64,000 bases of DNA from Mariannaea sp. PMI_226 (taxonomy: Eukaryota; Ascomycota; Sordariomycetes; Hypocreales; Nectriaceae), in the NCBI GenBank assembly GCA_024336345.1, contig JANFOG010000010.1:1116001-1180000 (forward strand), read 5' to 3'. Shown here in pieces: positions 7,345 through 62,080 of this stretch. The number at the start of each line of letters is the position of its first letter. Positions within the stretch are counted from its first letter, which is position 1. The position numbers and the translations under genes were made by a program. The notes under the pieces are model-generated. The model saw nothing but the letters and a program-made list of their open reading frames with translations. It ran no database searches and was not told where the DNA came from.

Positions 7345-8664
7345 ATGATGGTTGTGCCGTCAGAAACTATTTCGTCTTTCTATTTCCGCAAGACGGTTGC
7401 TTTGTTGCCCCCAGAGGCTCACCTGGAAACCACGCCAAATCCCAAGACACCCGAACTGTATCCTGCTTCGCCTGCCGACTATCGCATTCTGGCAAAGACG
7501 CTGGGATCCAAGAAGTCAGAGCTACCAGTACTCCTTGAGCACGCCAAAGATGACAGCGATATAAATTCCGGAGAGTGGAGGCATGTCGACTACCTTTCTC
7601 ACGACTGGAAGGAGGATGATATCCGGCTATCATGGAAATACATCATGACTCGTCGTAGAGAGTATCCAAATCGGTCTCGTTTAGAGAATACGTCCTGGAG
7701 AATATGGACGAAATGCAAATACAAACTGAAGACAATCTGTCCGGAGAGCCTTAACTGGTAAGAGCATGGTAGAAGTTGCGCAAATATCAAGCTAACTCAC
7801 AGTAGGTTCAAGGATTATGACTTAACTTGGCTCTACGGGCCGTTTCAGCAAGATCCAGGCCAGATTTATTGTGCAGATACTAAACTTTCTGGTAACTCAT
7901 CATCCAAGTCTAATTCACATGTCAGCGTCAGCAATAAGCCTATTCTAAAGAGAACGAGTCCGGGTATCATGCTGCAGAGGCCGTTATCGCATTTTTTCTT
8001 GCTCAAGCAGACCATGCCACCCTTGGCCCGAGGACAGGAAACTGAATCCCGGAGATCAACAAGGTTAAGTCTTGGTTCTGCCTCTAGTGGCATATCACTA
8101 GGCGTCGAGCGTAAACACATTCGATTTAATGACAAAGTCGAGCAATTTATTGCCGTCGAGGGGAAGAGTGATGTCGACGATGGCGCCAACTATGATTCTT
8201 ATAGCGAGAGGGATTCCGGTGATGGATGCACGATGAGGCGGCGGCGACCACCAAAGAGGGCTTCATCGATCAGAAGGAAATTAACGAATGACAATAAATC
8301 ATTCCCCTCTGACGAAAGGACAATTGCCATGCTTCCTTCTACAAGGCTAAACCACGGAGGTCCTGTTCAAGACCCCTCGCAGGATGCAATGAAGCATATA
8401 ATCAGCATCCGCAATCCTATACCCACACCATCCTTGTCACAAGAGACGTGTCCGAAGCATTTGGGTAGATTCCTCGAGGAAGAAGAGAACTATGATATGA
8501 CGGATGTCGATATCGATGAAGACTCAGTGAGAGGCTGCGCTAAGGGATTTGGAGAATTACCATCGAAGGATATGATATTTGGCTGCTATTTTAACACTGT
8601 TGACACTGCCAGGGACATGGCATATTTTTTGTGGAATATGGGCCGGAGAAAGCGAGTGTCTTGA
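7345..8664 (+). CDS. reg1: Reg1-like protein phosphatase 1 regulatory subunit (DUF1752), short form
   Basis: Two exons, 7345-7757 and 7806-8664 (48-nt intron splitting the Trp codon of SLNW), encode 423 aa. The fungal Reg1/DUF1752 core begins near residue 73: EWRHVDYLSHDWKEDDI, then ICPESLNW-FKDYDLTWLYGPF. The sequence KHIRFN (residues 241-246) before DKVEQFIAVE is the RVxF-like PP1-docking motif. An acidic stretch and the conserved C-terminal pattern NTVDTARDMAYFLWNMG follow. In yeast, Reg1 directs Glc7 to Snf1 and mediates glucose repression. Family members are usually clearly longer; this one has a short N-terminus and middle and lies between repeats, so it may be a divergent or decaying second copy. 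The start is the ATG of MMVVPSE; an upstream exon cannot be excluded. Confidence 0.8.
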
Positions 8665-14700: not shown

Positions 14701-16600
14701 GGGGTAATAATAATTAAAATCCCTAATTATAATAATATTATCATTAGGTTTAATAAAGTATAATGCCTATATTACTAGTAATATACCCCCACTTTTGGGG
14801 GGGTTATATAATATTATAATTCTTTTTACTAAATTAAGAAAATTAACTTCTGCCCAATCCTCACCTAATTAATAAATCCACAACTCAGGCCTATAATACT
14901 TATAAATATAGAATATAGCTTATCTATTGGTATATATTATATAATAATTTGCTCTTCTTAGGCATATTAGGGCACCTATTGATTATAAGGTCGCTAGTTT
15001 AAATAGCGCAATTATATTATATTTACTATAGGCCTATAGTGCTAGATATATAAGCGCTGGTTTCCATTATATATTCCAATATAGTATCTATATTTTAGTT
15101 TTATAATAAGAAGGATATAGTGGATAGAGGAGAGGACGATCTTATTTTGCCTAGGGATCGGCCCCGGCTTAGGGGAATAGCAATTGAGGTACATTAACTT
15201 TTATTTACCAATCCTATTGGGCATTTAGGTCCCAGCCTTTTAGAAGGTTATAAACTACTTATGCTAAATATAGCAAAAGTCTATATTAATTTAGTATTAT
15301 TATTTCATTCTTAATATTTTAGGGGTTGGTTTAAATAATCTTACTTTACTCAATCTTAATATACTTTTGTTATAAAGTAATCTCAACTTTATATTGGGTA
15401 ATCTCCTTTATATAAAGGGCAACAATATAGGATTTCTTTTTACTATATTGGGCAGTTTTTATATACTACTTCTCTACAATAACTATATATTGGGGGCACC
15501 TTATAATTCCTAATAATATATCTAAATTTAAAATAATTATAATATTATATTAAATAAAGGTTTTTATTAAATAGTTTATAATTAAAAAATTTAGTATTTA
15601 AAAGTAGGCTATTATTATATAATTAGTTTACTTTATAAATTAAGGCTATATAGAGGATTAGATTTATTCTTAGGGTGGCCCCAAATCGGCCCCTAGTTTT
15701 CTTTACTAAAATAATCTTTAAATTATTTAATTTATTAATTTTCTTAATAAAAATATTAATATTATTAAAAATAAATATAATTTAGACCCCTTTTGCAATC
15801 ATAATAAAGGTAGGGGGGCAAATATTATATTAATTCTAAAGGCTTTTTTAATCCAATTGGGGATATTATAATTCTTAGCCTTATCTAATATTATAAATAT
15901 AAAGACTATATCTTTACTAAATAGGCATTATATTATAAGTATATTAATATTGCCTTAGGCTATATTCACCGCCTAAATTATATCTATTAGTATTCTATTA
16001 CTTATATCTAGTGGTATATCTCTTATTTATATAATGACTTCTTTCTTAATATGGCTTTATATTAATTGCTCGCTATTTTTACTAATAGGGGGGTTTATGC
16101 TATAGAAGGCTATAGAGGCGTAGGAGGGCCTGGAATTATTACTACTAATTGTCATTTGGGGGTTTCCTAGGGCTATTGCAATTACTATATTAATAACTAC
16201 AGTAATGGTTATAGCGATTCTATCTTCCATTAACCAAATCATCTCCACATCGGGCAAGGCTTAGGCACACATCTTGCATTAATCGGCATATTTCTGCACA
16301 ACAGTCTAGACTTAGTCCATAAGGTTTGGGGGGATGATTTTAGCAATGGTGTTATACACTTCTTTTTCTTCATCTTCAATTAGATTTATATTCGCTACCG
16401 CCATGGGTCCATTGCTGACCCGGTTGTTAAACTGGCTTTTGTTAAATAGGGGGTTATATACGCTTTGGCTTAGGCCACGACGGCCAGAATCAATCACCAT
16501 TGGTAATGCCGCCATGTCTTCGCCGCAGCCCTAATGCGCCATCGGTTCTGGGCCCTTTAGGACCTGTAGATTTCAATTCTCTTATTAGAGAGGGTTTTTG
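11715..16600 (-). mobile_element. Tad-type non-LTR retrotransposon (LINE), RIP-inactivated
   Basis: Read on the minus strand, the reverse transcriptase core is clear. Bases 13195-13161 give GVP-stop-GLLLSPILF followed by an LFINTLYKALEA-like stretch, where the stop replaces the Gln of GVPQG. Bases about 13095-13060 give VVSFINNINILAFK, the [Y/F]VDD box with Asp changed to Asn. A cysteine-containing tail follows near 12060-12000. ORF1 remnants lie upstream at 16515-16057 and show two open stretches with little decay. A hairpin CCCCCCCTTATGGGGG at about 11725-11740 marks the probable 3' UTR. Frames are broken throughout by TAA and TAG, so the element is dead. The ends are approximate. Confidence 0.75.
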
Positions 16601-16639
16601 GGGCAGATTGGGGTTGCAGTAATAAGAACTAGTCTTATT

Positions 16640-19600
16640 AGGCAAAAAGATTATGATTAAAAATAATTATATTATATAAGGGAAGCTTATAATTTAATTT
16701 ATTTTATTAAAAATATTAAAATATTGATTATAATATGCTTAAAATATAATATAGTATATAGTAATATATATATATTTAAATATAAGTTTTATATTAAGAA
16801 ATATAAATCTAAAGAGAAGATATTAATATAAATAGGATATATAGGAATTATAAATAAAGAAGGAATTATATAGATATTTATTTTATTATTAGAAAAATAT
16901 TAAAACCTAGGAGTTAAGATCTAGAATAGTAAAATACTTATTATATTATAATAATAACCCCTAAAATCTAAAGAGTTTATTAAATATATATTATAATATT
17001 TACTTTATAAAATAATAAGGGCTAAAATATAATAGTATTTTAAAATAATAATTATTAAATATTATTAATAACTATTTTATTTAGTTATAGATATTAATAA
17101 AAATAGGTTATAATATAGATTTGGATATATTGAACTATAGATAATTATAGTAAATATATAAATGATATGAGAGTATAAGCTATTATTTAGAAGAGAAGAT
17201 ATCTTATTAAATATATAAATTAATAATATCTTAATATAATTTTAGAAAATAGAATTTTAGGAATATAGAGAAATTAAAATAGAATAAAAGTTTGATTATA
17301 ATTAGATTTTTATATATAGAGTTAGATATAAATAAGTATAGAAGTTTATAGAATAAATCTATATATTGTTACTAGGAGATTTTATATTATTTTTATTAAA
17401 GAGTTAATATTATAAAGGAATTTTATAAATATTATATTATAATATAAATTGCTATTATTATAAGGGATAGAAGGTTGAGAATAATTTGTATTTTATATAA
17501 TTATATAGAGAATTTATATAAAATATTTTTTATTATAATAAAATAGCTTTTAAGAAAGTTATTATTTAGAATAAGAAAATTTAAGTAATTATATTAGAAG
17601 ATAGAGTATAATATTTTCCCCTAGAATATATAAAAGAAGGAGTTATAATATAAGAATGTTTTTATAAAGAATATATTAAATATTAAAGGGAGAAAATATA
17701 AGGATAGTAAGATATATATATATTAATATATAAATAATAAATATAATGAAGACTATTATTAAAAGAGATCTAATTTTAAAAAATTAAAAAGGAATTTATA
17801 AATATATTTGGAATATATATAATTGAGTATATAGGAAGAGATGAATATATACCCTTATGGGATAGAAGAACCTTAGGAAATATAAGGAAGTTTAATAATA
17901 ATTAGTGATTAAATATTAAATTATAAATATAAGTTAAGGGAGAATGGTTAATTATATTAATAGATAGTGGAGTATATATAAATATTATTATATTATAAAT
18001 AATTAATAACTTTATACTATTATAAAAGAAGAAGGAATATTTATATAAAGTTTTAAATATTAAAGGAAATACTCTATTTTATAAATAAGGATAAATTAAT
18101 TACTAGATTGATTAATTGAAGATTATTGTTAAAGGAACCTAATAGAATGAAGAATTTGATATAATTGATCTTAAAGGATATAATATACTCTTTAGCTATT
18201 TATAGCTATATCGATTTAACCTACTAATTGATTGGCATATTGGCTAGATGTAAGTCTTTTGAGGTAATATAGTTAGTAATTAGAAATAATTAATTGAAGA
18301 TAATATAAGATCTTAAGGCCCTATTAATAAGAATGGAGGCAATTGAGCTAAGGAAATAATAAATTTATTTATGCCTAAAGGAATAAAATATAAATGGATT
18401 AAAGGAATTAAGAATTATATAAGAAAGATAATTGTATTCCTTAAATAGATATTTATATAAATGAATAAAGACCTTAAGGAAATGATTAAGATATTAAATA
18501 AAGAAGATAGACTTAAGAATATTCCACTATAATATTGGATTTATAAATAGCTTTTTATAGAAGAACTTAAGATAGGATTATTAAAATATAATTAATAAGA
18601 TTATAAAATATAGCTAAAGAATAGGATAATATTTATATTTTATGAAATTTATAATTTTAATAAAGTATAGTTTTAGATGCTTAAGGAATATTTTAAAAAA
18701 ATATTAAAAAAAAAATATATTAAAATATTAAAGTTAATAATTAAATATTTAATTATATTTATTTTTAAAAAGAATGGTAAGCTTTAATTAGTTATAGATT
18801 ATTGTAGGCTTAATAATATAATAGTTAAAGATAGAATATTATTATCTTTAATTAAGAAATGAAAAGATTAATTATAAGGCAAAAGGTATTTTATTATATT
18901 TAATTTTAAAGAAATTTATAATTTAATTTATATTACTGAAGGATATGAATGAAAAACTATATTTAGAATAAAGTTTAGACTATATAAATATTTTATTACG
19001 CTTTTTAGATTTATTAATATACTAATTATATTTTAGTAAATGATTAATAATATATTATATAAGTATTTTAATATATTTATAGTATATTATCTAGATGATA
19101 TTTTAATTTTTTTAAATAATAAAGAAGAATATATAGAATATATTTATAAAATATTATAAATATTATAAAATATAAAGCTTTTAGTTAAACTAAAGAAAAG
19201 CTACTTTTATATTATAGAAGTAGACTTTTTAGAATATTATATTTTTTATAATAAAATAAAAATAGACTTTAAGAAAGTATTGGTAATTAAGGATTGGCTA
19301 GAATTAATATTAGTTAAGGAAGTATAAGCCTTTTTAGGATTTATAAATTATTATTAAAAATTCTTTAGGAATTTTGGGAAAATAGTAATACCCTTTATTG
19401 AGTTAATAAAGAAAGATATTAAGTTTAAATTTATTACTAAGGCTTAAGCTATTTTTAAAGAAATTAAATAATTAATATTTAGTAAATTAGTTCTTAAAAT
19501 ATTTAACCTATAATAATTAATTAAATTAGAAATTGATATAATGTATATAATAAGCGAGCTGGTTAGACAAGCGAGCTGGTCAAAAATCCCTTATATACAT

Positions 19601-22600
19601 CACAAACCATTTAATTAAATGCTTCTCAACTATTAAATATATTATAGCAAAATAATGAAGTAAAGATTCTTCTTGCCCTTTGTGTTTATCAAAATGACCC
19701 AAAATTAAGTCTCCGTCGCGCCGCAAGGGTCTACTAGGTCTCTTATAGTACCCTCCTCAATAGAGAGAATGGTATCTCTGCACGATGTAATACCATTCCC
19801 AATTCACAAAAGCTATCTAATCTAGAGGAAGATATTATTATTTAGTTTATCCTGGATCTAAATTCGCGAGGATTTCCCCCACGATTGTGTGGTGTTGAAG
19901 AAATGGCTGATTAATTATTTGCTGATCGAAATGCATTACCTGTTAGTAAGTACTGGGCTTTAAACTTTATTAAATGCCACCTAGAGCTTAAAATACGATT
20001 CTTTTGTAAATATAATTATAAAAGAGCTAAATATAAAGATCTAAAGATAATTAATAATTGGTTTAGGCTTATGATAAATATAATAGGTAAGTTTGGCATT
20101 TGATTAGATAATATATATAACTTTGATAAGATTGGCTTTATGATGGGTGTTATTATAAGTAGAATGGTTATAATAGATATAGAAAGGCATTTAAACCCAA
20201 AATTGGTCCAGCCTGGAAATCGAGAATGGATTATAGCTATTCAAGCTATTAATACAAAAGGCTGGGCGATCTCGCTATTTTTTATTACCATAGGCTAATA
20301 TTATCTTACTAATTAATATTAAGAAAGCAACCTCCTAGGCAATTGGGCTATTACTATTACCCAAAATGGCTAGACCGATAATGCGATAGGTCTTAAGTGG
20401 CTAAAGCACTTTAATCATTATATAAATAATCGATCAATTGGTTGTTATTATCTTCTTATTTTTGATGGGTATAGAAGTCATTATTTAGTTCAATTTAAAG
20501 AATATTGTAAAGACAATAAAATTGTCACACTTTGTATGCTATCTAATTCATCTTATCTACTTCAGCCTCTCGACCTTTCATACTTTGGGCCGCTCAAAAT
20601 GGCATATGGAAAAGAAATAGAGTATTTGATTAGATGCTCTATTACCTATATTTTAAAGTCTGACTTCTTCCCAGCCTTTTATAATATACATAATATTGCT
20701 ATTATAGAAAATAATATTAAGGCAGGTTTTAAAGGAGTCGGGCTTGATCCTCTAGATCTAGAAAATGTCATATCAAAGCTTGATGTGTGGCTACAGACTC
20801 CAACACCATTCAATCAAGAGCTTGAGCCTACTAGCCCTTAGGCCTCAAAGACTCCAAAGACTATTACTGAGACTAGCTCCCAATCTGAGTACCTTGAAAG
20901 ACAAATTAGAAGGCTTTAAAGCACCTCTCCAAAGTCTATTATTAAAGCATTATAATCACTTTCTAAAGGAATAAAGGCTATTATATATAAGATAGTATTA
21001 ATGAAGGCTGAGATCCGGGATCTTCGATAAGCAAATGAGATATTTAGCAAACGGCGCAGATTAAAAAGGACTAGGCTATAAGATGGAGGGATAATGATAG
21101 TAGAGGTAGGAAGGGAAGCAATTGATTAAATGGAAGCCGATGTGTAGATATAGGCGGAAATATTGTAAAGTGGTGGTTGAGGGAAGTCGGCGCGATTGGG
21201 CGGAAGGCGCTGTGGGACTTGCGGCAAGACTGATCATAACGCAAGGATATGTTAGGTAGTTATTGAGACCTTTGAGGAAGAGGATAGCGATTAGGATCAT
21301 TTGATTAAATGCTTTGTAGTATTTTTATTTTGGTTTTAAAATAAGATATAGTGAAAAGTGACTAGCTCGCTTGTCTGACTAGCTCGCTTATTATGTACAT
21401 TATTAGACTTTACTTTAGGAGTATAATTAAAATAATAAGATAATAATGGCAAATTATACCTAATAGCATTCTATTTATATAAATTATATAGAGTAGAATT
21501 TAATTATCCTATTTATAATAAAGAATTCTTTATAATAATTAATATTTTTAAGGAATTTAAATATTATTTATTAAAAAGCTATTATTAAGTTAAAGTTTTT
21601 ATAGACTATAAGAATATTTTATATTTTATAATAATATAAGAACTTAATAAATAATAATTATAATATATAGAAATCCTAATAGAATTCGATTATATTATTA
21701 TTTATATTAAAGAAATGGAAAATAATAAAGTAAATACTATTAGCTAGTAAATTGATCTTAATATAGGATAATCTGAAATTAATAAATAACTTATAATTTA
21801 TATAGAAGAAGGATATTTAAGATAGAAGTATATTATAATTATTTGGAAAAAGATAATTAAATAGTTAAATGTGATTATTTGGAAAGAAGTATTTAAAGAA
21901 GGAGTTATTATTTATAAGGTAGAATAGGGAAATCTATTATTATAATGGATTTAGGAGTATAATAATTAACTATTTAAAGAAGAAAAAATTAATAAATAAT
22001 AGATATTAGAAGATTTAAGAGAATTGCTTATTAAAAAAATATATAAATATTTACTTTATAAATATTAAGGAATTATAAAAACCCTAGAATAAATTAAGAT
22101 AATATATATATTTTCTAAATTTAAGAAAATCATTTAGAAAATTATATAAATATATATTGTTTATAATAAAATGAAAGTACATAGATATAAACTATATAGA
22201 GAATTATAATTATTATTAATTATTATATAATTATAGGATATAATTATAATGGATTTTATTATAAAATTATCTTTATTATTAAATTTAATAATAAAGGTTA
22301 TTTATAATAATATTTTAATTATTATTAATAGATTTATTAAGTTTTTTTATTTTATATTATATTAAGAAAAAATAAATATAAAGTAATTTTTATATATTTT
22401 TATAAGAAATATTGTTAATATATATAGATTATTTATTAAGATTGTTTTAAATAGAAAATTATTATTTTTTTTAAACTTTTGGTAATGCTTAATGGATAGA
22501 ATTAGCTTAAATTATAAGTTTATTATTACTTATAGACTATAGATTAATAAATAAATAGAAAGGATAAATTAAATATTAAAAATATATTTTTGATATTATA

Positions 22601-24145
22601 TTAATTATAAATAAGATAATTAGGTTAAGAAGTTATTAATTATATAATTTATTTAGAATATTACTTATAATAAGAATATAAAGTTAATATTAGTTTATAT
22701 TAATTTTTGATTTACCCTAGATACTTATAGAATATTAATAGAAAAAGGACCTATTATATTAATAGCTATATTTAAAATAGATGAACTTAAGAATCTATAT
22801 GAAGAATTATATATAGAATTTTCTTTTATATAAAAATAATATAAAAAGTATTATAATAAAAAAAGGTTAAAGGGATTAATCTTTTTGGAAGGAAATATGG
22901 TTTTATTTATTATAAAAAATATTAAAATGAAATAATTAAATTAAAAACTTAATTATAAATATATTAAATTATATTTAATTAAGAAGAAAATTTTGGATTA
23001 TAATTATAAGATTAATTTATTAGATAAAGTTAAAATCTATCTAATCTTTTATGTTTTATTACTTAAAATTATTAATAAAGATATGATTATTATTAGGAAT
23101 TAGATATTTAAAGTAGAGGTTGATAGACTAGAAGAATGGGAAGTAGAGAAAATCCTCAATATAAGAGAAAAAGATAATAAAATTAAATATTTTATTAAAT
23201 AGAAAAATTACCCCAAAAGTGATAATTTATAAAAACTATTTAAATACCTTATATATACTTAATATTTATTAAAGGATTTTTATTAATAAAAATAAAGAAA
23301 TTGTTTAGTTTAATAATATTTTAGTTAATAATATTAATAATATTAAAAGATTAAATCTTTATAATAGCCTTAGATTTTATATACTTTAAATCTTTTAATT
23401 TATTTAAAGATTATAAATTATAATATACTATTTTTATACCCTTAGTTTTTAATTAACGCTTTTGATAATGAAGATAAGTTAGTTTTACTAGAATTTTGTT
23501 TATATAGGCTTGTGCCTTTTGGACTGCTTATTATAAATGAAGAAAGTCTTCCTTAATTCATTTTTCTTTTTGCTTTAGTTAATTAGACTTATTATTAATA
23601 TATATTATTATGAAAGTTAGTAAAGAAAGGGAAGAGAAATATAAGGAACTGATGAGCACTAATTGCTATAGAAGAAATATTATAAGAATGACCTCAATAG
23701 GCGCATTTAGTACACCGGGTCGATTTCTTAGGAAAAACCCAATAATAAAAATTATAAGCTATACAAAATGAATAAAATATAATATTAAAGTCTAGATAAT
23801 GAATTATATTATCTAGTTTAAATATAGCTAAATGTTCTTTTGAATTGTTAATATATTTGGATATAATGTTAGTTAAAGAATATGAAGAAAAGAAGTTAGA
23901 GAACTAATTAAGAATAGAAACTAAAATAATTATAAACCAATGGCCTTAAGGATAAGACCTTCGGAGGGGAGATATTATATTATGACCTAAATTATAATCT
24001 ATATTTATTTTACATATGACCCACTTTTTCACACCAATTAAACTAGATTATTAATAATTATGGCCAGGACATTATAATCGCCTCTTAATCTTTATAATGA
24101 TTATTTACTATAGATTATAGGCAAGCTATAATCGCCTTATATTAT
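16640..24145 (+). mobile_element. Chromodomain Ty3/gypsy retrotransposon (chromovirus), RIP-inactivated and interrupted
   Basis: Domain order on the plus strand is as follows. A gag-like region is at about 16660-17900. The protease motif ILIDSGVYINII is near 17955. Reverse transcriptase shows KKNGKL-stop-LVIDYCRLN near 18770 and YYLDDILIF near 19085. RNase H is split at 19540 and resumes at 21403 (LDFTLGV, then HYQVKVF-like). Integrase spans about 22050-22700 with MDFIIKLSLL and ITYRL-stop-INK. A C-terminal chromodomain lies near 23125-23280 (WEVEKILNIREKDNK, FIK-stop-KNYPKSDN). A purine tract GGAGGGGAGATA at 23963-23974 is the likely polypurine tract, followed by a putative 3' LTR that seems interrupted at 24146 by the miniature element. 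Many Gln and Trp codons are stops. I could not identify the 5' LTR, so the left end is approximate. Confidence 0.85.
19541..21400 (+). mobile_element. Fot1/pogo-family DNA transposon, 1860 bp, nested in the gypsy element
   Basis: Terminal inverted repeats of 42 bp (19541-19582 and 21359-21400) match at 38 positions. Each contains an internal direct repeat of AGCGAGCTGGT. A TA duplication sits at 19539-19540 and 21401-21402. Removing the element plus one TA restores the gypsy RNase H frame (EIDI-LDFTLGV). The transposase on the plus strand shows a CENP-B-like N-terminal part and then the catalytic DDE_1 core: Asp at 20124 (NFDKIGFMMG, where family members have NFDE), Asp at 20464 (LIFDGYRSH) and Asp at 20572 (LLQPLDLSYFGPLK). 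The last two are in frame with 35 residues between them (DD35D). A CCHC-like knuckle (CGTCGKTDHNARIC) lies near 21215-21256. Stops break the frame, so it is defective, but it is visibly less decayed than its host. Confidence 0.9.
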
Positions 24146-26839: not shown

Positions 26840-28485
26840 CTATCGCACACCCAGATCTCTCTTCCACACTTTTACCGGCATCTCACCCAGAATATGGTTC
26901 ATAGTCTCCTCGCGTTGCAGCTCAAACCCCTCTGCAATAGCGAATTCATAGCGATGGACAACGGAGGCAATCACCACGGCCTGTTCAAGATACGAAATAT
27001 TGCGACCAATGCATCCTCTGGCACCGGCAGAGAATGTTACAAAGTACGATTGAATCTCCTTACCCTTGTCACCCAAGAAGCGTTCCGGAATGTACTTTTC
27101 GGCATCTGGGAACACAGATTCATCGCGGTGAGCGACAAGCGAAGAGACACTGACTGTGGTATTGCCGGGTACAAACTGTCCCATGATGTTTAAACCCTCC
27201 TCAGGAGTCTTTCGTGCAAGCCCCTGGGGCGTAGGAGGCCACAGGCGCAACGACTCGTCAAGACAGGCTCGCAAGTAAGGGAGATGTTTAATCTTGTCAT
27301 ATGGAGCAACATACTCCTCCGGATCAAGAACCCCGTCAAGCTCAGCACGGAGCTTTGCAAGGATTTCGGGATGGAGGATTAACTGATACATGATATTGGC
27401 AAGGGCGATGGCGGTGGTAACACTACCGGCGTTCATCATGATGTTGATTTCCGCGACAACCTCGCCCCATTCGAGGTTGTGAGGGTCACCGTACTTATCC
27501 TCCATCAAGGCTTGGAAAAAGTCGTCGAGCTTTTCGCCTGAACGGTAACGCTCGAGACGAATGTTGGCGCGACGGAGGACAATGGCATCCCAGCCTCGGC
27601 TTGATTCCGTCATCTTCCGGTAATAGGGGATAACATTGGAGAGTTTGTCGATGAGTTTGTAATTATCGTAACTCCACAGCAAATGTGCCTGCTTGCGAGC
27701 AGTAGGGTATAGGCACTGGCGGAGGTTTGTTTCGAAGAGAGAGCCATCCTTTTCCTGAGCCATAACTCGGTCATGACCTTGGTCAAGGAGCCCGAGGCGC
27801 TCCGAGAGACCAATATCGGCAATGGCATCGAGAGAGAAGAAGTTTGTCCACGCACGAAAGTCAACGGTAAGATCCTTAGGATCGGCGTATTTGGCTCCCT
27901 GGGCAAGGGGACCAGTGCATCGCCTATCAAACTGGGCCATCATCGTATTAGTCTTGTCGGCCACCTTGTATTCCCATCGTTCAAGATTCTTGAGAGCATA
28001 TGCAGAAGACAGGACCTTGCGCTTTCGAGCATGTTCGGGCTTGTCAACAACATCAGCCAGATGAAAGTGGGAACCAGCAGTCAGAACGTATGACTCGTCC
28101 TTGGTGCAAGGAGTGCCATGGCCATAGATGTCCTTGATTGCCTTGACGCTACCGAAGGACAGGGAATTAGTTCCAGTACGGAGAATAGGTTCTGTCTTGT
28201 GGAGTTTGGCTAGATGTGAAGATCGAGCTCCCTTTTGGGCTAAGAGCATGAAGGGGATATTTGACGTTCCCGAGAATGTGGACATGTTGGGAAATCGGCG
28301 AAGACCTGATTGAGCATGATGTAAGCATATAGATGTATAGGAGAACGGTGAGATGGTAACAAAGCAGACTTACCCTTTGGGTCCTTGATGTAGATCACAC
28401 ATGGATAAATGATGAAGTAGACAAAGAGAGCCACGCCCACAGCGGTAGCATATGGAGCATTGCTCAAGGGTGCGAGTGACTCCAT
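26840..28485 (-). CDS. Cytochrome P450 monooxygenase
   Basis: Two exons, 28485-28374 and 28305-26840 (68-nt intron), give 525 aa, normal for a fungal microsomal P450. The N-terminus has a membrane anchor (about residues 12-33) and then the KDPKG-LRRFP hinge. Motifs: I-helix AGSVTT (330-335), ExxR ESLR (388-391), PERF, and the haem loop FSAGARGCIGRN with Cys469 as the iron ligand. The I-helix lacks the usual Asp/Glu before the Thr pair (Val333 instead), which may alter proton delivery. The substrate is unknown; general character suggests a class E group I enzyme such as benzoate-hydroxylase-like P450s, which is only a guess. It is divergently oriented to the zinc-cluster regulator, with about 600 bp between them, a common arrangement in metabolic clusters. 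Confidence 0.93.
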
Positions 28486-36517: not shown

Positions 36518-38003
36518 CTAGCATGCAAAAAGGAGCTTTCGACCACTCTGCAGTATACGGCCGACAAAATAAACGACAAAGGCTGCAAAATAAGCAACTC
36601 CTGCAAAAATAATAAGATTTCTGTAGGATCCATCTTCACCACCAATAAGAGCCCCAGCGAGAGGAATCCCAATAAGTGTTCCAAAGCTGGCAAGCGTATA
36701 GGCCGTGCCACTCCGTTTGCCATAGTCTTCCGTCTTGCAGACTTTCCCGATGCACACAGGAGCCAGGCTGATAGATGCCCCAGACCAAAACCCGTACAAA
36801 ACGGCAAACGACGTGGTCATGGCCCTATTTCCGTCGGCTGTGAGCCAAATACTGAATATTAGAGCCATACAAGTGAATGCCGTAATACACATTGTGTTCA
36901 CGACTCCAATGCGATCTGCCACATACCCTGGCAATGCTCGTCCTGGCACAGCACCAGCGTTCATGAGGGCGTTGAGCATGTATGCATCCTTAGGGGCAAA
37001 CCCCGAATGCAGAGCATACGCACAGATGTAGGTGATTGGTACAAAGATCGAGAACTCAATTAGGACCACCCCAAGAGTTAGAACGCCGTAGTTGATCTCC
37101 GCCAATGCCTTGAAGTCAATGGAAGAACCGGCCTTTTTGTTGTGAGGCAATCTTTTCCGCAATAGGATGCAAGCTAGGAGTCCATGAACCGCGAAGATGA
37201 GAGCAATTACTCGCATGGACCAGTCGAAGCCAATACGTGGGGCCAGGTACAGAATCACAAGAGGAATCCATACGCCTCCGATACCACCTGCGGTGCATGC
37301 AACTCCAGTAGCCAAACCTCGTCTTTTGTCAAACCAATGGCTGATCGTAGAAATGCTGGGGTTGAAAAGAAGAGACGCTGATATGCCTCCAAGAACGCTG
37401 AATGAGAGGAAAAACTGATAAAAGTCTGCGATAGGTTGGTCCAATGGTGTCCAGACACTTAGGCGTGGATAGGAACTCACGTTGAGAGAAGCTTAGGCAA
37501 ATCGTGGAAGCTACCATGCCGATCGAGCCAGGAATTATCAATACTCGGATATCGTAGGAGTCGAAGATCGGCCCTAGAAACTTGTACGTGAGTTCGTGTC
37601 ATAGTCAAACACCAACTCAAGTGGATGGACGTACCAACTTGAGCGCCGCAAAAGAACAAAAAAAAGGCATATGCGCTGAAAATCCAACCCAATGTCGACT
37701 CTGGCATACCGCGAAGTTGATGTTCGCTCAACCATGCCTCAATCACTGCCAGGGAATTGAGAAGACCCATTGACGGAATCATAGCGCACCAAGCACCCAA
37801 GACAACCAGCCAGGCCTGCATTCCACCTTCAGGAGTGTCGGAATCATCTTCTGTATTGTGTATCGCTTCTTCGATTCCTAAAATTGGTGAGATGTGAGAT
37901 TGTAATTATCAAAAAGAATGATTGGGGACTTGGATTGCGTACTATCAGGGTTCCCTTCCCTGGTCTCCTCGAGAGGTATCGGTCTTTCTTGAGTTATAGC
38001 CAT
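36518..38003 (-). CDS. MFS permease, monocarboxylate transporter-like
   Basis: Four exons: 38003-37943, 37877-37635, 37573-37481 and 37425-36518, giving 434 aa. After a short acidic N-terminus, helix 1 reads GMQAWLVVLGAWCAM, typical of fungal MCT-like (MCH-type) permeases, followed by NSLAVIEAWL and STLGWIFSAYAFFLFFCGAQVGPIFD. Later signatures are STISHWFDKRRGLATG, GGIGGVWIP, ALPGYVADRIGVVN and YGKRSGTAYTLASFGTLIGIP. It probably carries a carboxylate or aromatic acid across the plasma membrane. The last residues (LQSGRKLLFAC) differ from the usual family ending, so a missed 3' intron with further coding sequence to about 36400 is possible. Confidence 0.88.
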
Positions 38004-39317: not shown

Positions 39318-40085
39318 ATGTATCTCAGGGCTGCCCATGTCGAGACGGACCTTCGTGTCCTTCGACGTCTCATCCACGACAATCCCCTCGGCCTGCTCAC
39401 CACGGGTATCCCTTCTCAAAAGTACTCATTTCTCCAAACAAGCCATATTCCGTTCGCGTTGGATGTGGAGGATGAGTCAAGCGAAACAGAACTTGGACGT
39501 CTCCGAGGGCACCTAGCGAAAATGAACCCTCACAGCAAGTCCATGATGGACAGCCTGAGTGAGAAACCACATTTAAACAGTTGCCTTGAACAGGAGGTTA
39601 TGGTGCTTTTCAATGCTCCAGAGCATCACTACATCACACCAAAGTTCTACACACAGACCAAACCCGACACCGGCAAAGTCGTGCCGACCTGGAATTATGC
39701 CGCAGCGCAGGTCTACGGGAAAGCAAAAATCTACTTCGATTCTCAGTCAGAGGAAACAGGGAATTTCCTCAGCAAGCAAATTCGGGATATTAGCCACCAC
39801 AGCGAGACCACGATAATGCGCCACACGGGAGGGGACCGGCCAAAGGAGTGGTTAGTCTCGGATGCTCCAGACCAATTTATCAATCTCCTGAAAAAGAATA
39901 TCATTGGCATCGAAATCACCATCGACCGTCTCGAAGGAAAATTCAAAATGAGCCAGGAAATGGGCAAAGGGGATAGGGAGGGAGTTATCGCAGGGCTGGG
40001 AAACATAGGGTCAGATATGGGTCAGGGTGTTTCTGAGCTTGTGCAGAAACGAGGAGAAATCAAGGACCAGGCGTCAAAGAAGTGA
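39318..40085 (+). CDS. PaiB-like FMN-binding domain protein
   Basis: A single-exon gene of 255 aa, normal for fungal members of the FMN-binding-2 (PaiB) family. Hallmarks in order: MYLRAAHVETDL, HDNPLGLLTTG, SHIPFALD, RGHLAKMNPHSK, VMVLFNAPEHHYITPKFYTQ, VPTWNYAAAQVYGKAK, and IIGIEITIDRLEGKFKMSQ before a Lys-rich end. Structurally this is a split-barrel flavin-binding fold. In Bacillus subtilis, PaiB is encoded next to the polyamine acetyltransferase PaiA and affects sporulation and degradative enzyme genes. In fungi the role is not established. The adjacent convergent gene is a PaiA-like acetyltransferase, which strengthens a functional link. Confidence 0.93.
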   Translation: MYLRAAHVETDLRVLRRLIHDNPLGLLTTGIPSQKYSFLQTSHIPFALDVEDESSETELGRLRGHLAKMNPHSKSMMDSLSEKPHLNSCLEQEVMVLFNAPEHHYITPKFYTQTKPDTGKVVPTWNYAAAQVYGKAKIYFDSQSEETGNFLSKQIRDISHHSETTIMRHTGGDRPKEWLVSDAPDQFINLLKKNIIGIEITIDRLEGKFKMSQEMGKGDREGVIAGLGNIGSDMGQGVSELVQKRGEIKDQASKK

Positions 40086-47134: not shown

Positions 47135-48131
47135 TCAGCTCGCATCGTCATCTTCAAAGTACTCAAATTGTGGGACAGGCTTGAACTCCTCGTCAATATC
47201 CTCTTCGTCCGAACTGTCACCGTCATCATATTCACCCCCAAACATGGCTCCTTTTGTATTTTCTTCTTTCAATTTTGCGATACCCTTGCGTCGAGAGTAT
47301 ACAAACTCGCGAACTCGGTAGGCAAAGTCAGAATCTCCTGTTACTTCCAGGCTTGCTGTGAGGGAGCCTGTCTTATCGTGAGACACCTCGCCTTTCAGCG
47401 CAGTATCCGTCACAGGCAGAGTGGCCTCAGCCGACAGAGTTGCCCCGCTTGCACTGCCCTTTGTCTCGGTGAATTCCAATTTGCTGCTCGTGGCTACCCC
47501 GACGATCATGTAGAGCGACTTGGAAAAGACACATTTTCGAGCAAAATCCTTGACACTCTGGTTGAGAAGGGCTAGTTCCATGTACTCCTTGCTAGGTCTG
47601 AACCACTTTGTGCGGACGTTGAGGGCATCAAGTGTTGCATTCATCGTGTGGTTGACATGCCCTTCAACACCACCTTGGAGACCTGGGATGAGGCTCGAGG
47701 GCACAACTTTCAGCAGCGCGTTGGTGTTTTTCATAAGCTCTGCCTCCACCACTCGCCGTTCCAACGCTGAGTCGTGAAACAAACTTTCTTTTGGGACTGG
47801 AATAATTCCATCGTCCAAGTTTAGCGAGGAGTCTGGTTCTCGTGGATCGGATAAGATGCTTCCGAGGATGAGTAGCTTGTCAGGTTCTTGGGGATATCGA
47901 TAGACATGCCATTTCTTAGCACCTGCAGGCTCTCCGTCTACCATGGCTCTGAAAGTCGATAACGAAAGGGGATATAGGTTCTCGTCAAATGAATTTAGAT
48001 GCAAAACTAGAAATATGAATTGAATTAGTTGTTCATCCTCAAAGGGACATGAGCATCTATCTCACAACTACTGTTCCATCATAAGAAGAACCTGGCTGAC
48101 GAGGAGTTTGCACAGCCGCCCTGCAGCTCAT
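47135..48131 (-). CDS. Gasdermin-like pore-forming cell-death protein (HET-Q1/RCD-1 type)
   Basis: The main exon runs 47980-47135. A likely first exon is 48131-48066 (MSCRAAVQTP...GTVV), joined by an 85-nt intron, giving 303 aa. The first junction is the least certain: an alternative acceptor would retain SFDENLYP coding. The N-terminal part has KLLILGSILSDPREPDSS and DDGIIPVP. The later pattern LYMIVGVATSSKLEFTE, then small-residue-rich strands, then SDFAYRVREFVYSRR follows gasdermin pore-forming domains (strand LYVVTE..., ending LAFRVRQL). A 50-residue very acidic tail follows. In Podospora HET-Q1, proteolytic removal of a C-terminal fragment of about 5 kDa frees the pore-former. The divergent neighbour encodes a subtilisin-type protease, as in het-Q loci. 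Family call by pattern, not by alignment. Confidence 0.75.
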
Positions 48132-48655
48132 TTGTTTTGGTCAAGATCGACGTAAGCGCTGATGGCCGTTTCAGCCGATACTCCAAACCACCATGCCATC
48201 GATCCCTGCTTGGCGCTTAATTATCAAATCATCAGCCAACAGACAAATCATAATCCAATGGCAAAATTGCCTCAGTGGAGTGCATCCTCAGCCGCTCGGC
48301 TCTGCATTGGAACTCGCGTATCAGAGCGAATCTGACCAGTTCGCAGCCATAGAGTGGTTAGCACCACTTCTCTTCTATATCCATTCGCTCCAAAGCTGCA
48401 TCCACAATATTCTAGTCCCCTCAGCACGTCTGAGCTTTAGACAGAGAGGTGTACAAGTACACGCGTACCGTTTTGGGCTTAATCTAACAAGGTCTCGTGC
48501 AAAATTTCCGTCTTTTTCCCGGCTCGTTGACTGGTGGTTTCCAGTTGGTATTGGTACACTTCAACCGGTCGCCAAGCAACGAGCTCGAGACCTGAAGCAG
48601 CCGGCATCCAACTGAACACACTGCTGTGGTCAATTTCAATTAGTACTGATCCGCG
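48132..48655. promoter_or_regulatory. Divergent promoter between gasdermin-like and TPR-protease genes
   Basis: 524 bp separate the two start codons, which face away from each other, so shared regulation is plausible. An ORF at 48193-48615 lies entirely inside and shows no domain; I regard it as non-coding. Confidence 0.5.
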
Positions 48656-51507
48656 ATGGCCTCGTTTCTATCAGAGGATTCGGCAAGTCAACGAGCGGCA
48701 GGGATAAAGTATTTCGAGAGACAAGAATATGTCAAAGCTGAGTCTCATTTCCGAGCATCGCTACGAGAAGGAAAATCGGACAATCACCAAGATACCCTGC
48801 TTACCAAGTATTGGTTAGCATTGACCTTGTTCGAACTCAAAGCGTTCAAGAAAGCACAGAGTCTGCTCGAAAAGGTACTAGATGGGCAACAAGAAAAGCT
48901 GGGTGAGGATCACCATGACACTCTCAATACCATGCGCAAGCTAGGATGGACTCTCTATCAGCGAAAACACTACAAGAAAGCGGAAGCAAGGTTCAGAGAG
49001 ATTGTTGAAATCCGCGAGAGGAAGCTTGGAAGCCAGCCTCACAAACTCCTTCAAGGCGATTATTGGCTGGCATGGACACCTAAAAGACGAGAGAAGCTCA
49101 AGGTCGAACAGGAAGGGAAAGTCACAGAGGATTATGCCGAATATTTCCAAGATAAGCGTGGACTAGGCATGTCTCTCTTCCAACGGCAAAAATACGACGA
49201 AGCTATCAAGGTCTTACTGCAGACGATTGAAGGACAGGAGGAAAGGATTTCTCAGCCAGACATTGATACTCTCTCCAGCAAACATTCTCTGGCTCTGATC
49301 TTATATAAACAAGGGCTGTATGAAGAAGCCGAAAAGATATTCCAAAGAACCGTCGACGAGCGTGAAACTAAGCTTGGGAAGACGCATCCTGATACTCTTG
49401 AGAGCAAACGTTTCTTAGCATTCACGTCATACCATGTAAGCAACTACAAGGCAACCGAAGATATACTGAAGCAAGTGTTAAAACAACAAGAGAAAATTCT
49501 TGACAAGAAAGAGGCGAATGTGTGTAGTCTCGATCCAAACGGTGGTAATCTAGCCAAAATCCGGCTGCACAAGCCAGGATTTGACCAAGGGTTGGAGAGT
49601 TACCACTTCACAATCAACGCACAAAATCTTCTTCGAGAGGCCCACATCAGGACTCTGACCAGCAAATATTGGTTAGGTAAAACAATGTTCCAGCAGAATA
49701 GATTCAAGGAAGCCGAGAAAATGTTCCGCCTAGCATTCGATGGACAGAAGAAGAATCTTGGTATTCTGGACGACTGGAAGTTATGTCATCGAGAGGATGA
49801 CAATTCTGAGACGATGGAGAAGCGCAAGAAGGGCGAGAATGACTTTTTTTGGACCATGAGCTGGCTTGCACGCTCGCTCGTTAAAATGCGTCAATATGGC
49901 GATGCCGCGGAACTACTCGAGCTCCTGCATGATAAGCAGGTGCCAGAACTCGGAGACCTTCATGAAGACACCCAAATGGCGCGGGAATTGCTAATGTCAC
50001 TGAAAAATTTACAAGATAAGGTCAATGAGGCCAAGAGAGCTAGTCTGGAAGCAGCTGACCAGACTCCAAACGACGACCAACAGCTCGTTTCGAATGAGGT
50101 CGTTTCTCTAGAAGAGACTAAGAGTAGCACCAGAACGCAGCTCAATCAGGTTTCGTCGAGTAAGTTGTGCGCCAAAGTGCAAGACTTGGAAGTAGGCGGT
50201 ACGACTGGCGACGAGAATATAGGTTCTGATCATGAAGATGATGGTGTGTACTCTCCTAACGATTTTGATATCCCTTGTTTGTTCCTTGGTACTGATGGTG
50301 GCAGTCTCAGATGGTGAACCTGGGACCTTCGACAGTGTCATTCGTCCTGCCTCGCATATAACGTAAGTGCTACGTTGTCCGTTGAAGCAAATCTACGACA
50401 TATCTAACAGGAAAAAACAGTGATAGTCCAGCGGAGAAAACATTTTCGGAGTTGCAGCGCATTATTCGCCACCATTTCTGTTACAAGGAGAAGGACAAAC
50501 GAGTCAAGATTGCTATCCTAGATACGGGCATTGACGGAGACCATCCTGACTTCCAGCGGCCGAGAGCCAAAAGACTAACCTTTGTGGACGACGTTATCGA
50601 ACATGCTGATGCCAAAGGCGAGATACCTCAGTGCCAGCGTATCACAGCGTTCAAGGACTTTTGCAGTGACTCGGAAGGCGAGAAGCTTGTAGATGTGGAC
50701 GGACATGGTACATACATCGCTGGAATAATCTTGCGGCTGGCTCCTTGGGCCGACCTTGTTGTTGCAAGGGTATGCTTTGGAGATGTCAATCGAGGGGTTC
50801 CGAGCACTCAACGACGGCAAACATCCAGAAAGAATCGTGACGAAACTCGCCCAGATCCAACTGTCGTAGCACGGGCAATTGAATGGGCAACTGAACAAGG
50901 AGCTGACTTGATTAACGCCTCGTTTGGCTACAACGAGTATCAGCCCGTTATTGAGGCCGCCCTCATGAAAGCAGAAAAACACGGAATTCTCACATTCGCC
51001 GCGACGTCGAATGAGGGTAACCACCAAGACGTTGCGTATCCAGCACGAAGCAACTTCACCATCGGCGTCCATTCTTGCAACGACATGGGCACCAGATCAT
51101 CGGAGTTCACTCCCAGTGCCCAACCAAGGGATCACAATTTCATGGCTATCGGCGAGAATATTATCTCGCAGTGGTCGAGCAGCAAAGGTGGCAGCTATCG
51201 TATAGGCAGCGGGACATCTTTTGCAACTCCGGTTGTGACCGCCATGGCAGCTCTCATCTTGGCATTTGCAAACCAGACCATGTCCAGTCAAAGCAGAGCT
51301 CAGTTCCTCAGCGAAGAAGACATTCGCCGCCTCAAGGAGAGGAACGGCATGGCAGCGGTGCTCGCAGCTCTGAGCAAAGGTGTACATGAAAATAAGTATC
51401 TCTGGATTAGACCGACACTATTGTGGTGCAACTTTGATCGCACAGGACCTGATTCAAGTGATGAACATGCATGGCGAGTTCTGAAAGACGCACTGCGCCA
51501 CCGGTAG
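48656..51507 (+). CDS. TPR-subtilisin (S8) serine protease, HET-Q2-like
   Basis: Three exons, 48656-50243, 50305-50362 and 50421-51507, give 910 aa. Residues 1 to about 440 are kinesin-light-chain-like TPRs (ALTLFELKAFKKAQSLLEKV, LGWTLYQRKHYKKAEARFRE, LALILYKQGLYEEAEKIFQR). A charged linker follows to about 550, and the C-terminal peptidase S8 domain comes last. The catalytic triad is complete: Asp583 (ILDTGID), His644 (DGHGTYIAG) and Ser815 (GTSFATPV), with the oxyanion Asn in ATSNEGN. No signal peptide or classical propeptide is seen, so it acts in the cytosol. In Podospora the subtilisin-like HET-Q2 cleaves the gasdermin HET-Q1. Here the TPR array probably serves as the sensor or recruitment module. 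Divergent pairing with a gasdermin-like gene supports this role. Confidence 0.9.
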
Positions 51508-51915: not shown

Positions 51916-54253
51916 TTAATGGGTGCTTGGAAGCGTCTCCGAGATTGCTCCTAACGATGTCAACATACTATCGTTCTTTGACATTCCATAGTTAGCCTAG
52001 CTTGTCTTCTTCTTACTGCAGATACTCTACACTCACCTGGTTCCAATAAAATCCTGTGATCGTAGTGTCTGGAGAGGTTTTAATGCGCTTTTGTATAAGG
52101 GTATCTGGGTCCGCTGGCCGTATATGTCTGAACTGGTAAGATCTCCCGCGATTGGTGAAAATCTAGCAACATATTGGTCAGGCCAGGACAACGTCATATT
52201 ACGAAGTCGTGGGGAAGAAATGGGTAGCCTTCAGGAAGCAAGGTCGTTACTTACCTTGATCGATTCCAATATCCCTTCTGGGAAATACCACGAAACATCA
52301 AGGCCAGGACAATTCTGGAGATACACCTCAACGTCCTCAATGACTTCCCCTCGCGGGCCGTCAATAGGGAAGTACATAACCTTCATATTAGAAGGGTTAA
52401 TCTTGCCCACTCTACAATATTCAACTGGGACATCATTGATGTTGTAATGAAACTCAATAGCGCGCGGTACGACCCAGCTGGTAACAGACACGCCGACCAA
52501 ATTACGGAGGTACTTTCCGCCAGGTCCTCCAAACATTGTCCAGCAAAGTGGCTCATACCTGATTGCCGAGGAGTCTCTCGATGTGAAACCGTCGTCGTTG
52601 AGGCACAATTCAGCCCTTGGAATTTGGGGGTACCAAACTGCGGAATCCCAAAGTGATATGGATGAAGCCTTCTCACCCAGTTGTATGTCAGACTTTACAA
52701 CTCCGAGACTAACCATTTTGTATCCCTACCAGACTGCGTCAGTAATGCAAGTAACATGTTGGTAAGATAAGCACCATGTTGAAATACATACATCAAATCC
52801 AGCTTTGACAGCCACTACTGGGCCAGAACCCACAAGACGCCTGGTTTTTGGAGTTTGTTGGTGTGATCCAAGCCAATCCGATGTGCACCCATTTTCGAGG
52901 ACACACTGGATGCCTTGCACACCCCTTGACCCGACGGCGAGGATGAAGCCCTCTACTTGGCTCTCGGGGTCCAATGCGAGCTCTTTCTCTCCTAAATGAT
53001 ATCCTAGCCGCAGTACCTCGCCTTGTTCTAGTGTAAAGCTCATCCCAGATATATACTCAGCATCCCCGACTTGAACAAAAGAGCACGCTATTCGTGAGAG
53101 ATGACTGGTGATAGATACTTGCTGCTCATAGAAGATACGGCAGCCTTCACCGAAGCCATGATATGGTCCAACGGACGATTCAGGTCGCAAATTGCCAGAT
53201 GCTTCAAGCCACTTCCAATTGGCAGAGTTAGAGCTGGAATGACGAGTTGGAGTAGACTCAGAGAGCATTGGGCATGCACTTTTTCGTACAGCTACCGTTC
53301 TCTGCATCCTCTGTAACAACTTCCATACTCGTTCCCGATTACGCATTCCCGCAGTGAAATGAGCTTTGTTTGTTACGCGATAAAGCCACCTCCAGTCGAT
53401 TGCCTTGCTCCACTCTTTCGACTCAAAGAGCCATGGGCGTTCGCCAAAGGGCCTGAATCTGGAGGCCCAGAATTGTTGGCTGTGTAAAATGGCCAAGAAC
53501 TTCCGTGAAACCTGGCGGAAATTTAGTGCATCTACCGTAGACAAATAAGATGCAATGCAAATGCAGATCTCCAAGGGAAGTGCTTGAAGAGCATTGGTTG
53601 ACTTTGTCACCGCTTTAGAGAGCGATAGGGCTGGAGGGGTTTCAGGAGTCTGGCTGGGGAGTTGGTGGAGCTCTGGGACGCAGTAAGGGTCTACTCTGGC
53701 ATCGTGGAAGCGGTTGCTGAAGGTGGTAGAGTGATTTTCCCATGGATAGCGATCCACATCCTTATTGAGCAGCAAGCCATCGAAATCGCAGCCCCAGCTG
53801 AGACCATTGCCCCCAGGAGGAAAGGGAAGTGACCGACAAACTTCGAAGAGAGCTTTGTGAGGGACATGCTGAGGAGAATAGGCCTTTTCAAGCAAGCTCC
53901 AGCAGGACTCGTGAAAAGGAAACCCATATCTATCATTGCGAGGAAATTGGCCAAGGACCCCAATTTGGTCTCCATCTGGGAAATCATAGCCTTCGTCGTT
54001 CCAACGAGCGGTCGATTTCGAAGGCGCTATCCAATTTCTGGAATTAGGATCATTGCGAACTCCTACTCCTGAGATTGAAACGCCGCCGGGACTAGAATAG
54101 ACTAAAAGGGCTAAGTAAAATGGCATTAGGTAGCAATGGAAGCATCAAGCACTCACGAATACGGAACTGCTCCAACCAAGAGTGTGAGCCTGGATTTTTA
54201 TCATCGAAAATGAAGTAGCCACAAATGACGCAGGAACAGACACGAGGATTCAT
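51916..54253 (-). CDS. F-box protein, fungal type
   Basis: Five exons: 54253-54157, 54110-52792, 52725-52255, 52162-52037 and 51975-51916, giving 690 aa with all phases closing. The N-terminus MNPRVCSCVICGYFIFDD has paired Cys (CSCVIC) that could bind a metal. The F-box spans about residues 208-250 (LPLEICICIASYLSTVDALNFRQVSRKFLA). The C-terminal half (VGDAEYISGMSF, LAVGSRGVQGIQ, KTRRLVGS, FDGYKMVSLGV, GFYWNQNDSM) is a beta-rich module common in fungal F-box proteins, probably for substrate binding. It should act as an SCF ubiquitin-ligase adaptor; the target is unknown. Divergent from the TRAPPC12-like gene. Confidence 0.9.
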
Positions 54254-62008: not shown

Positions 62009-62080
62009 TAGCAATTACACGTTTCGATCGTGTGACCTCCGGGTTATGAGCCCGGCGCGCTTCCACTGCGCCAAATTGCT
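62009..62080 (-). tRNA. tRNA-Met (anticodon CAU), no intron
   Basis: 72 nt fold into a complete cloverleaf: acceptor stem AGCAATT/AATTGCT, D stem GCGC/GCGC, anticodon stem CCGGG/CCCGG with loop CTCATAA (anticodon CAT), T stem ACACG/CGTGT with loop ATCGAAA, and discriminator A. The anticodon stem CCGGG rather than a GGG/CCC initiator type, and the A-T start pair in a GCAAUU stem, favour the elongator tRNA over the initiator, but this is not decisive. CAU could also be a modified Ile tRNA in bacteria; in a nuclear fungal genome Met is expected. Confidence 0.95.

What the first reader, a model, noticed from the sequence alone, without database searches (positions are those of the whole stretch)
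47135..51507. Gasdermin-like pore-former divergently paired with a TPR-subtilisin protease (HET-Q-type cell-death locus)
The minus-strand protein shows the strand pattern LYMIVGV...FAYRVREFVY of gasdermin pore domains and a 50-residue acidic tail. The neighbour 524 bp away, in the opposite direction, encodes TPRs plus an S8 protease with an intact Asp583/His644/Ser815 triad. In Podospora, HET-Q2 (subtilisin-like) cleaves HET-Q1 (gasdermin-like) to trigger cell death, and fungal gasdermin genes often cluster with protease genes. A sensor-like TPR array fused ahead of the protease suggests a self-contained detection-and-execution module for non-self recognition or immunity.
Basis: partly seen in the sequence, partly recalled or inferred. 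Interest (0 to 1): 0.88.

Follow-up and report, generated by a model that had tools for sequence, protein, structure and literature searches.

The report
Fungal gasdermin paired with sensor protease
A fungal genome carries, side by side, a gene for a pore-forming cell-suicide protein and a gene for a protease, fused to a repeat-built sensor, that most likely switches it on; the arrangement is real but of an already described kind.

Summary
The finding holds. The minus-strand gene (47135-47944, 269 aa) is a fungal gasdermin: it matches the solved HET-Q1 pore at E 3.6e-32, its predicted fold matches RCD-1, and 48 homologues were found. Phe235 aligns with the last residue of the HET-Q1 pore chain, the likely cleavage position; it is Phe in 48 of 49 sequences. 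S8 relatives appear to share a contig with a gasdermin in four fungi; two more carry a gasdermin in the same predicted protein. Reviews describe this class: about 80% of fungal gasdermin genes lie near a protease gene, often with TPR, ANK or WD40 repeats. It is a new member of a known kind. New details are a TPR half related to TPR-kinases joined to an S8 half related to ANK-proteases, and a conserved GxFD block in the sensor-protease linker. Cleavage, pore formation and a role in allorecognition are inferred, not shown.

The parts
47135..47944 (-). Fungal gasdermin CDS, 269 aa, single exon, stop included
   Evidence: translation; one search match to HET-Q1 pore 9uv9 E 3.6e-32; (48 homologues); fold; start supported
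47240..47242 (-). Codon of Phe235, predicted P1 residue of the activating cut (motif KGAMF|GG)
   Evidence: aligns with the last residue (Phe) of chain 9uv9_A; Phe in 48 of 49 sequences, Gly232 in 49 of 49; HET-Q1 P1 F238 from PMC10989679 and PMC12881547; that the chain end is F238, and the cleavage here, are inferred
47138..47239 (-). Acidic C-terminal tail (residues 236-269, 16 of 34 D/E) with conserved VPxFEYFExxD motif, predicted inhibitory piece
   Evidence: charge; Pro258 in 48, Phe260 in 44, Asp267 in 47 of 49; inhibitory role inferred from HET-Q1
47945..48655 (.). 711-bp divergent intergenic region between the two ATGs
48656..50243 (+). Exon 1 of TPR-S8 gene: start codon and TPR array (residues 1-529), sensor half
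   Evidence: TPR_12 1e-36, TPR_10 1.2e-33; no NB-ARC/NACHT match at E<=1; one search match of residues 16-449 to TPR-kinase P0104
50244..50304 (+). Intron 1 (GTGTGT...CAG, 61 nt), inferred
   Evidence: among the sites tried only two-intron models (8) join the frames; exon 2 alignment to homologues
50305..50362 (+). Exon 2, linker between sensor and protease; carries GTFD (50322-50333) of the conserved GxFD block
50363..50420 (+). Intron 2 (GTAAGT...CTAACAGGAAAAAACAG, 58 nt), inferred
50421..51507 (+). Exon 3: S8 subtilase domain (Pfam match 50497-51294) and C-terminal extension, stop included
   Evidence: Peptidase_S8 1.8e-32; subtilisin structures; no Met before the catalytic Asp or His, so this exon cannot encode a complete protease alone
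50521..50523 (+). Catalytic Asp583 codon
   Evidence: Asp in 31 of 31 aligned relatives
50704..50706 (+). Catalytic His644 codon
   Evidence: 31 of 31
51217..51219 (+). Catalytic Ser815 codon
   Evidence: 31 of 31

Best explanation
A two-gene regulated cell-death module of the fungal gasdermin/HET-Q2-like (Q2L) class. Shown here: a gasdermin pore domain followed by a short acidic tail that carries the conserved scissile motif; a divergent neighbour coding for a TPR array joined to an S8 protease with an intact triad; recurrence of gasdermin plus this S8 family in other fungi. Inferred: at rest the acidic tail keeps the gasdermin inactive and the TPR half keeps the protease in check. When the TPR array senses its (unknown) cue, the S8 domain cuts the gasdermin after Phe235, 34 residues are lost, and the pore domain oligomerises in the plasma membrane and kills that cell compartment, as a defence or non-self response.
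Against: No direct evidence of expression, splicing, cleavage, pore formation or killing. Pfam has no match for the gasdermin at E<=1, and the Pfam Gasdermin model found nothing in this genome, although it rang in no control genome either. The gasdermin model has only moderate confidence (mean pLDDT 69.8; residues 174-189 under 50; tail blocks 47-63), so tail docking is not shown; the HET-Q1 entry 9uv9 is not among the 50 rows shown. 44 of 48 gasdermin homologues have no contig match in the S8 list; that search was limited. No polymorphism data.
Confidence: 0.87

Rival explanations
1. The gasdermin is activated without cleavage, RCD-1 style, by meeting an allelic variant after cell fusion; the neighbouring protease has another job.
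For: RCD-1 is the nearest fold match shown and is cleavage-independent (PMC12881547).
Against: Sequence similarity is much stronger to HET-Q1 (E 1.9e-57) than to RCD-1 (5.8e-06). The scissile motif and the end motif of the tail are conserved, and the protease pairing recurs.
Confidence: 0.05
2. The adjacency is accidental: the S8 protein is an ordinary intracellular subtilase and the gasdermin is controlled elsewhere.
For: The genome holds 20 S8 matching stretches (lower bound), so proteases are not rare.
Against: The closest S8 relatives are sensor-S8 proteins, and four appear to share a contig with a gasdermin homologue; two are joined to one.
Confidence: 0.04
3. The pair is a decaying or unexpressed relic.
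For: No transcript data; the linker block is only partly kept in this protein (GTFD kept, the following G-x-[LM]-F-S not).
Against: Both frames are open, the triad is intact, the splice sites are GT-AG, and conserved tail residues are kept.
Confidence: 0.04

Closest known systems
HET-Q1 / HET-Q2 of Podospora anserina
   Same: Gasdermin with pore domain, short tail and Phe at the cleavage position; S8 subtilase partner.
   Different: HET-Q2 is described as a 388-aa S8 protease (PMC10989679); here the S8 domain is fused behind a TPR array (910 aa). Allelic incompatibility is not shown here.
fGSDM / Q2L two-gene clusters (Clave et al. 2022, seen only through reviews)
   Same: Adjacent gasdermin and multidomain S8 protease with TPR repeats: the described class (PMC12881547, PMC10197012, PMC10989679).
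   Different: Nothing that sets it outside the class; this TPR subfamily was not seen with an S8 domain among the 39 TPR hits listed (precomputed Pfam lists; only the 7991 candidates sharing most words were scored).
RCD-1 of Neurospora crassa
   Same: Gasdermin fold.
   Different: RCD-1 is cleavage-independent (PMC12881547); here a conserved scissile motif and tail are present.
ANK-S8, DUF7580-S8 and TPR-S8 proteins of ascomycetes (P0050-P0070)
   Same: S8 domain near the C-terminus behind a sensor half in the five of this set that were scanned; linker with GxFD block in 14 of 21.
   Different: Sensor half differs. Even the TPR-S8 P0062 (Hypoxylon rubiginosum) aligns well only over the S8 half (41% over 398 alignment columns; TPR pieces E 2e-04 and 4e-04).
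TPR-kinase P0104 of Lepraria finkii
   Same: N-terminal TPR array, 31% identity over residues 16-449.
   Different: C-terminal protein kinase instead of S8.

Membership tests
Fungal gasdermin (fGSDM, HET-Q1-like) | Sequence homology over the pore domain to a characterised fungal gasdermin | tested here: met
   9uv9 HET-Q1 pore, E 3.6e-32, residues 7-230
Fungal gasdermin (fGSDM, HET-Q1-like) | Gasdermin fold | tested here: met
Fungal gasdermin (fGSDM, HET-Q1-like) | Short C-terminal tail with Phe at the cleavage position | tested here: met
   Phe235 aligned to last residue of 9uv9_A, Phe in 48 of 49
Fungal gasdermin (fGSDM, HET-Q1-like) | Tail removal unleashes membrane pores and cell death | not testable with these tools
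   needs expression experiments
Q2L (HET-Q2-like) gasdermin-controlling protease | S8 or CHAT protease domain with intact catalytic residues | tested here: met
   Peptidase_S8 1.8e-32; D583/H644/S815; each conserved in 31 of 31
Q2L (HET-Q2-like) gasdermin-controlling protease | Gene within 10 kb of a gasdermin gene | tested here: met
   711 bp between ATGs
Q2L (HET-Q2-like) gasdermin-controlling protease | Cleaves the adjacent gasdermin | not testable with these tools
   needs co-expression
het-Q allorecognition locus | Partner is a short S8 protease (HET-Q2, 388 aa) | tested here: not met
   910-aa TPR-S8 model
het-Q allorecognition locus | Incompatible alternative alleles among strains | not testable with these tools
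   single genome, no isolates held
NLR (NB-ARC/NACHT receptor) | Nucleotide-binding domain | tested here: not met
   no NB-ARC or NACHT at E<=1 in the TPR or S8 frame; the 19-residue exon 2 was not scanned
RCD-1 type, cleavage-independent gasdermin | Activation by pairing of two allelic variants without proteolysis | not testable with these tools
   needs alleles and expression; the conserved scissile motif argues against

The most novel reading that the evidence does not exclude
In sensor-S8 gasdermin proteases the linker before the protease carries a conserved block (G-x-F-D-G-x-[LM]-F-S) that imitates the gasdermin cleavage site (e.g. GTMFS in both the Nemania abortiva protease P0052 and its gasdermin P0012). 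It may work as a built-in pseudosubstrate latch or self-cleavage point, so that sensing releases the linker and frees the S8 domain: a licensing step for fungal pyroptosis comparable to the LIPY/F pro-peptide of bacterial intracellular subtilisins. In the window protein only GTFD of the block is kept.
Probability: 0.12. Interest if true: 0.6.

Novelty: new member of a known kind. Interest (0 to 1): 0.36.

Why it matters
It adds a well-defined example of pyroptosis-like machinery in fungi in which sensor, protease and executioner fit in two neighbouring genes. What activates the sensors of this class is described as a major open question (PMC12881547). The comparison here shows the S8 half kept while the front half is exchanged (ANK, DUF7580, TPR), which points to where cue recognition may lie, and it marks a conserved linker block to test as the lock between sensor and protease.

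Tried and rejected
Pfam Gasdermin (PF04598) in the own genome gave nothing, but it rang in no control either, so it says nothing. The single-ORF reading of the protease was rejected: exon 3 has no Met before its catalytic Asp or His. A one-intron model was rejected: none joined the frames among the sites tried (donors GT[AG]NG between 50150 and 50420, introns of 45-120 nt).

Tandem expansion of the TPR array, as in some fast-evolving fungal sensors (recalled), was not seen: Tandem Repeats Finder on 48600-50350 gave one row, score 30.

The site-mimic idea was tested with a profile of the gasdermin site. The best hit lay in the linker in 8 of 32 proteases (31 relatives and the window); column-permuted profiles reached 8 or more in 132 of 1500, and profiles from unrelated gasdermin blocks reached 7, so this is not significant. 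The window's own linker scored -6.3, rank 25. AlphaFold of the relative P0052 put residues 402-421 below pLDDT 50 and the ten-residue blocks over 421-440 at 64 and 58, with no strand of three residues there: no support for a docked latch.

An RCD-1-type and an NLR assignment were considered and set aside (see membership rows). The HET-Q1 entry 9uv9 does not appear in the rows shown; I do not know why.

The primary paper (Clave et al. 2022, PMC8851545) is not held; I know it only through reviews. Whether the tail end motif or the linker block is already in print could not be settled: in the listings (titles and starts of abstracts) I saw no paper reporting them, but of papers on gasdermins I opened only passages of three reviews and one section of one of them.

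Full report
Setting. The window is a 64-kb piece of a 42.2-Mb genome in 25 contigs. The protease gene needs introns, and the nearest named relatives of the gasdermin and of the S8 half are ascomycete fungi (taxonomy recalled), so I treat it as an ascomycete; the species was not identified.

Gasdermin gene. The minus-strand frame 47135-48061 is open; the ATG that fits the homologues is at 47944, giving 269 aa. The closest homologue, Xylaria telfairii P0002 (50% identity over 96%), has the same 11 residues before the conserved Trp, and 39 of 49 sequences have 11-14. Pfam has no match at E<=1, yet phmmer against solved structures gives one hit, the HET-Q1 pore 9uv9, E 3.6e-32. A profile of the 49 sequences gives HET-Q1 1.9e-57, RCD-1-2 5.8e-06 and bacterial gasdermins 0.0065 and 0.0087. 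PADLOC's bGSDM model is matched weakly, E 0.0017.

Scissile motif. In the profile alignment chain 9uv9_A ends at a Phe that lies opposite Phe235. Reviews give HET-Q1 F238 as the P1 residue cut by HET-Q2, with loss of about 40 residues or 5 kDa (passages, PMC10989679; PMC12881547). That the last chain residue is F238 is my inference. Across 49 sequences Gly232 is invariant, Phe235 is Phe in 48 (the exception, P0027, has an unrelated tail end), and the tail ends in a second conserved motif, VPxFEYFExxD: Pro258 in 48, Phe260 in 44, Asp267 in 47. The predicted released piece is 34 residues, 16 acidic and 1 basic. Conservation at both ends of an otherwise variable tail fits one end being the cut and the other a contact that holds the tail, but docking is not shown.

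Protease gene. ORF 48656-50317 holds TPRs; ORF 50386-51507 holds an S8 domain. A scan of splice sites found no one-intron model and eight two-intron models. Exon 3 has no Met before the catalytic Asp and His, and exon 2 aligns with a conserved block in relatives, which supports the fusion. Transcripts are lacking. The three catalytic residues are conserved in 31 of 31 aligned relatives, P0050-P0080. The remaining 23 of the 54 hits (E 1.1e-9 or weaker; the two with an organism name are bacterial) were not aligned.

Partnership. That the genes are neighbours is indicated only for Bathelium, by the consecutive tags. The other 44 of 48 gasdermin homologues had no match in the S8 list; the S8 search was limited by length and by word sharing, so this is a lower bound. 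A gasdermin profile run over P0050-P0142 (93 proteins) finds a gasdermin within two S8 proteins: P0063 of Cudoniella acicularis (DUF7580-S8-gasdermin) and P0077 of Ophiocordyceps camponoti-rufipedis. These may be real fusions or merged gene models of neighbouring genes; either way they show adjacency. In the own genome the gasdermin search finds only this copy, and the S8 half finds only weak paralogues (best 2.5e-13, 32%).

Mosaic origin. The S8 half is closest to ANK-S8 proteins (44%), then DUF7580-S8 proteins and one TPR-S8 protein, P0062 (architectures of six relatives scanned). P0062 aligns well only over the S8 half. The TPR half, searched alone, gives 39 hits at E<=1e-25, only the 7991 candidates sharing most words having been scored. 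By the precomputed Pfam lists 19 of 39 carry a protein kinase (PF00069), 8 an NB-ARC (PF00931), 3 PF12770 (CHAT, name recalled) and none the S8 family PF00082 (counted by eye). The best is a Lepraria finkii TPR-kinase, 31% over residues 16-449, with the kinase at the C-terminus. Among these, then, sensor first and effector last is a recurring layout in which either half can differ; NB-ARC proteins such as P0106 have their TPRs last.

Linker block. In the 21 closest S8 relatives the linker shows one block that stands out in the alignment consensus, eGxFDGxLFS, about 40-50 residues before the catalytic Asp. G-x-F-D occurs there in 14 of 21 proteins (15 matches in 861 positions) against 2 matches in 17,713 other positions; seven lack it, and the sequences are related, so this is not a probability. 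The window has GTFD at residues 536-539 but then SVIR. In seven of the 21 the block reads DGxLFS or DGTMFS, like the gasdermin cleavage site; in N. abortiva protease and gasdermin share GTMFS. A profile test was not significant (8 of 32 best hits in the linker; 132 of 1500 permuted profiles reached this), and the P0052 model shows no ordered strand there. Bacterial intracellular subtilisins have a pro-peptide with a LIPY/F motif that binds across the active site (passages, PMC6220982), so a linker latch has a precedent. I hold this as a speculation.

What is known. Passages of PMC12881547, PMC10989679 and PMC10197012 (its section 15 read in full) state that about 80% of fungal gasdermin genes are clustered with protease genes, about 60-63% with S8 proteases, that many of these proteases carry TPR, ANK or WD40 repeats, and that the pairs are thought to be sensor-executioner units. 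The window pair fits this description in the features tested. It is not strictly het-Q (no short HET-Q2; no allelic data), nor an NLR (no NB-ARC or NACHT found).

Verdict. A real, intact, ordinary-for-its-class but well-defined fungal gasdermin/Q2L cell-death module. The finding's interest lies in the detail (sensor exchange, linker block, tail motif), not in the existence of the pair.

Noticed in passing
window 12000-24000: AT-rich island (GC 0.22-0.27) with TpA/ApT 1.08-1.24 and (CpA+TpG)/(ApC+GpT) 0.85-1.02, against 0.63-0.81 and 1.19-1.38 in the GC-normal blocks (1-8000, 28001-64000): looks like RIP-mutated repeat DNA; thresholds recalled.
   Followed up: partly
P0063 (residues 1182-1451) and P0077 (residues 394-629): Predicted proteins of Cudoniella acicularis and Ophiocordyceps camponoti-rufipedis that carry a gasdermin C-terminal to an S8 protease: natural fusions or merged gene models.
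   Followed up: partly
window 50322-50333; P0050-P0070 linkers: Conserved G-x-F-D(-G-x-[LM]-F-S) block about 40-50 residues before the catalytic Asp of sensor-S8 proteases, in part resembling the gasdermin cleavage site.
   Followed up: partly
window 48656-50243: TPR half is closest to fungal TPR-kinase proteins (Lepraria P0104); no S8 protein is among its 39 listed hits.
   Followed up: partly
window 52726-54126 (-): Neighbour downstream of the protease: F-box plus DUF7600 protein, a common fungal gene type (recalled); no link to the module found.
   Followed up: no
window 26840-28285 (-), 36518-37480 (-), 39318-40085 (+), 62009-62080 (-): Cytochrome P450, MFS transporter and FMN_bind_2 genes and a tRNA-Met.
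   Followed up: no
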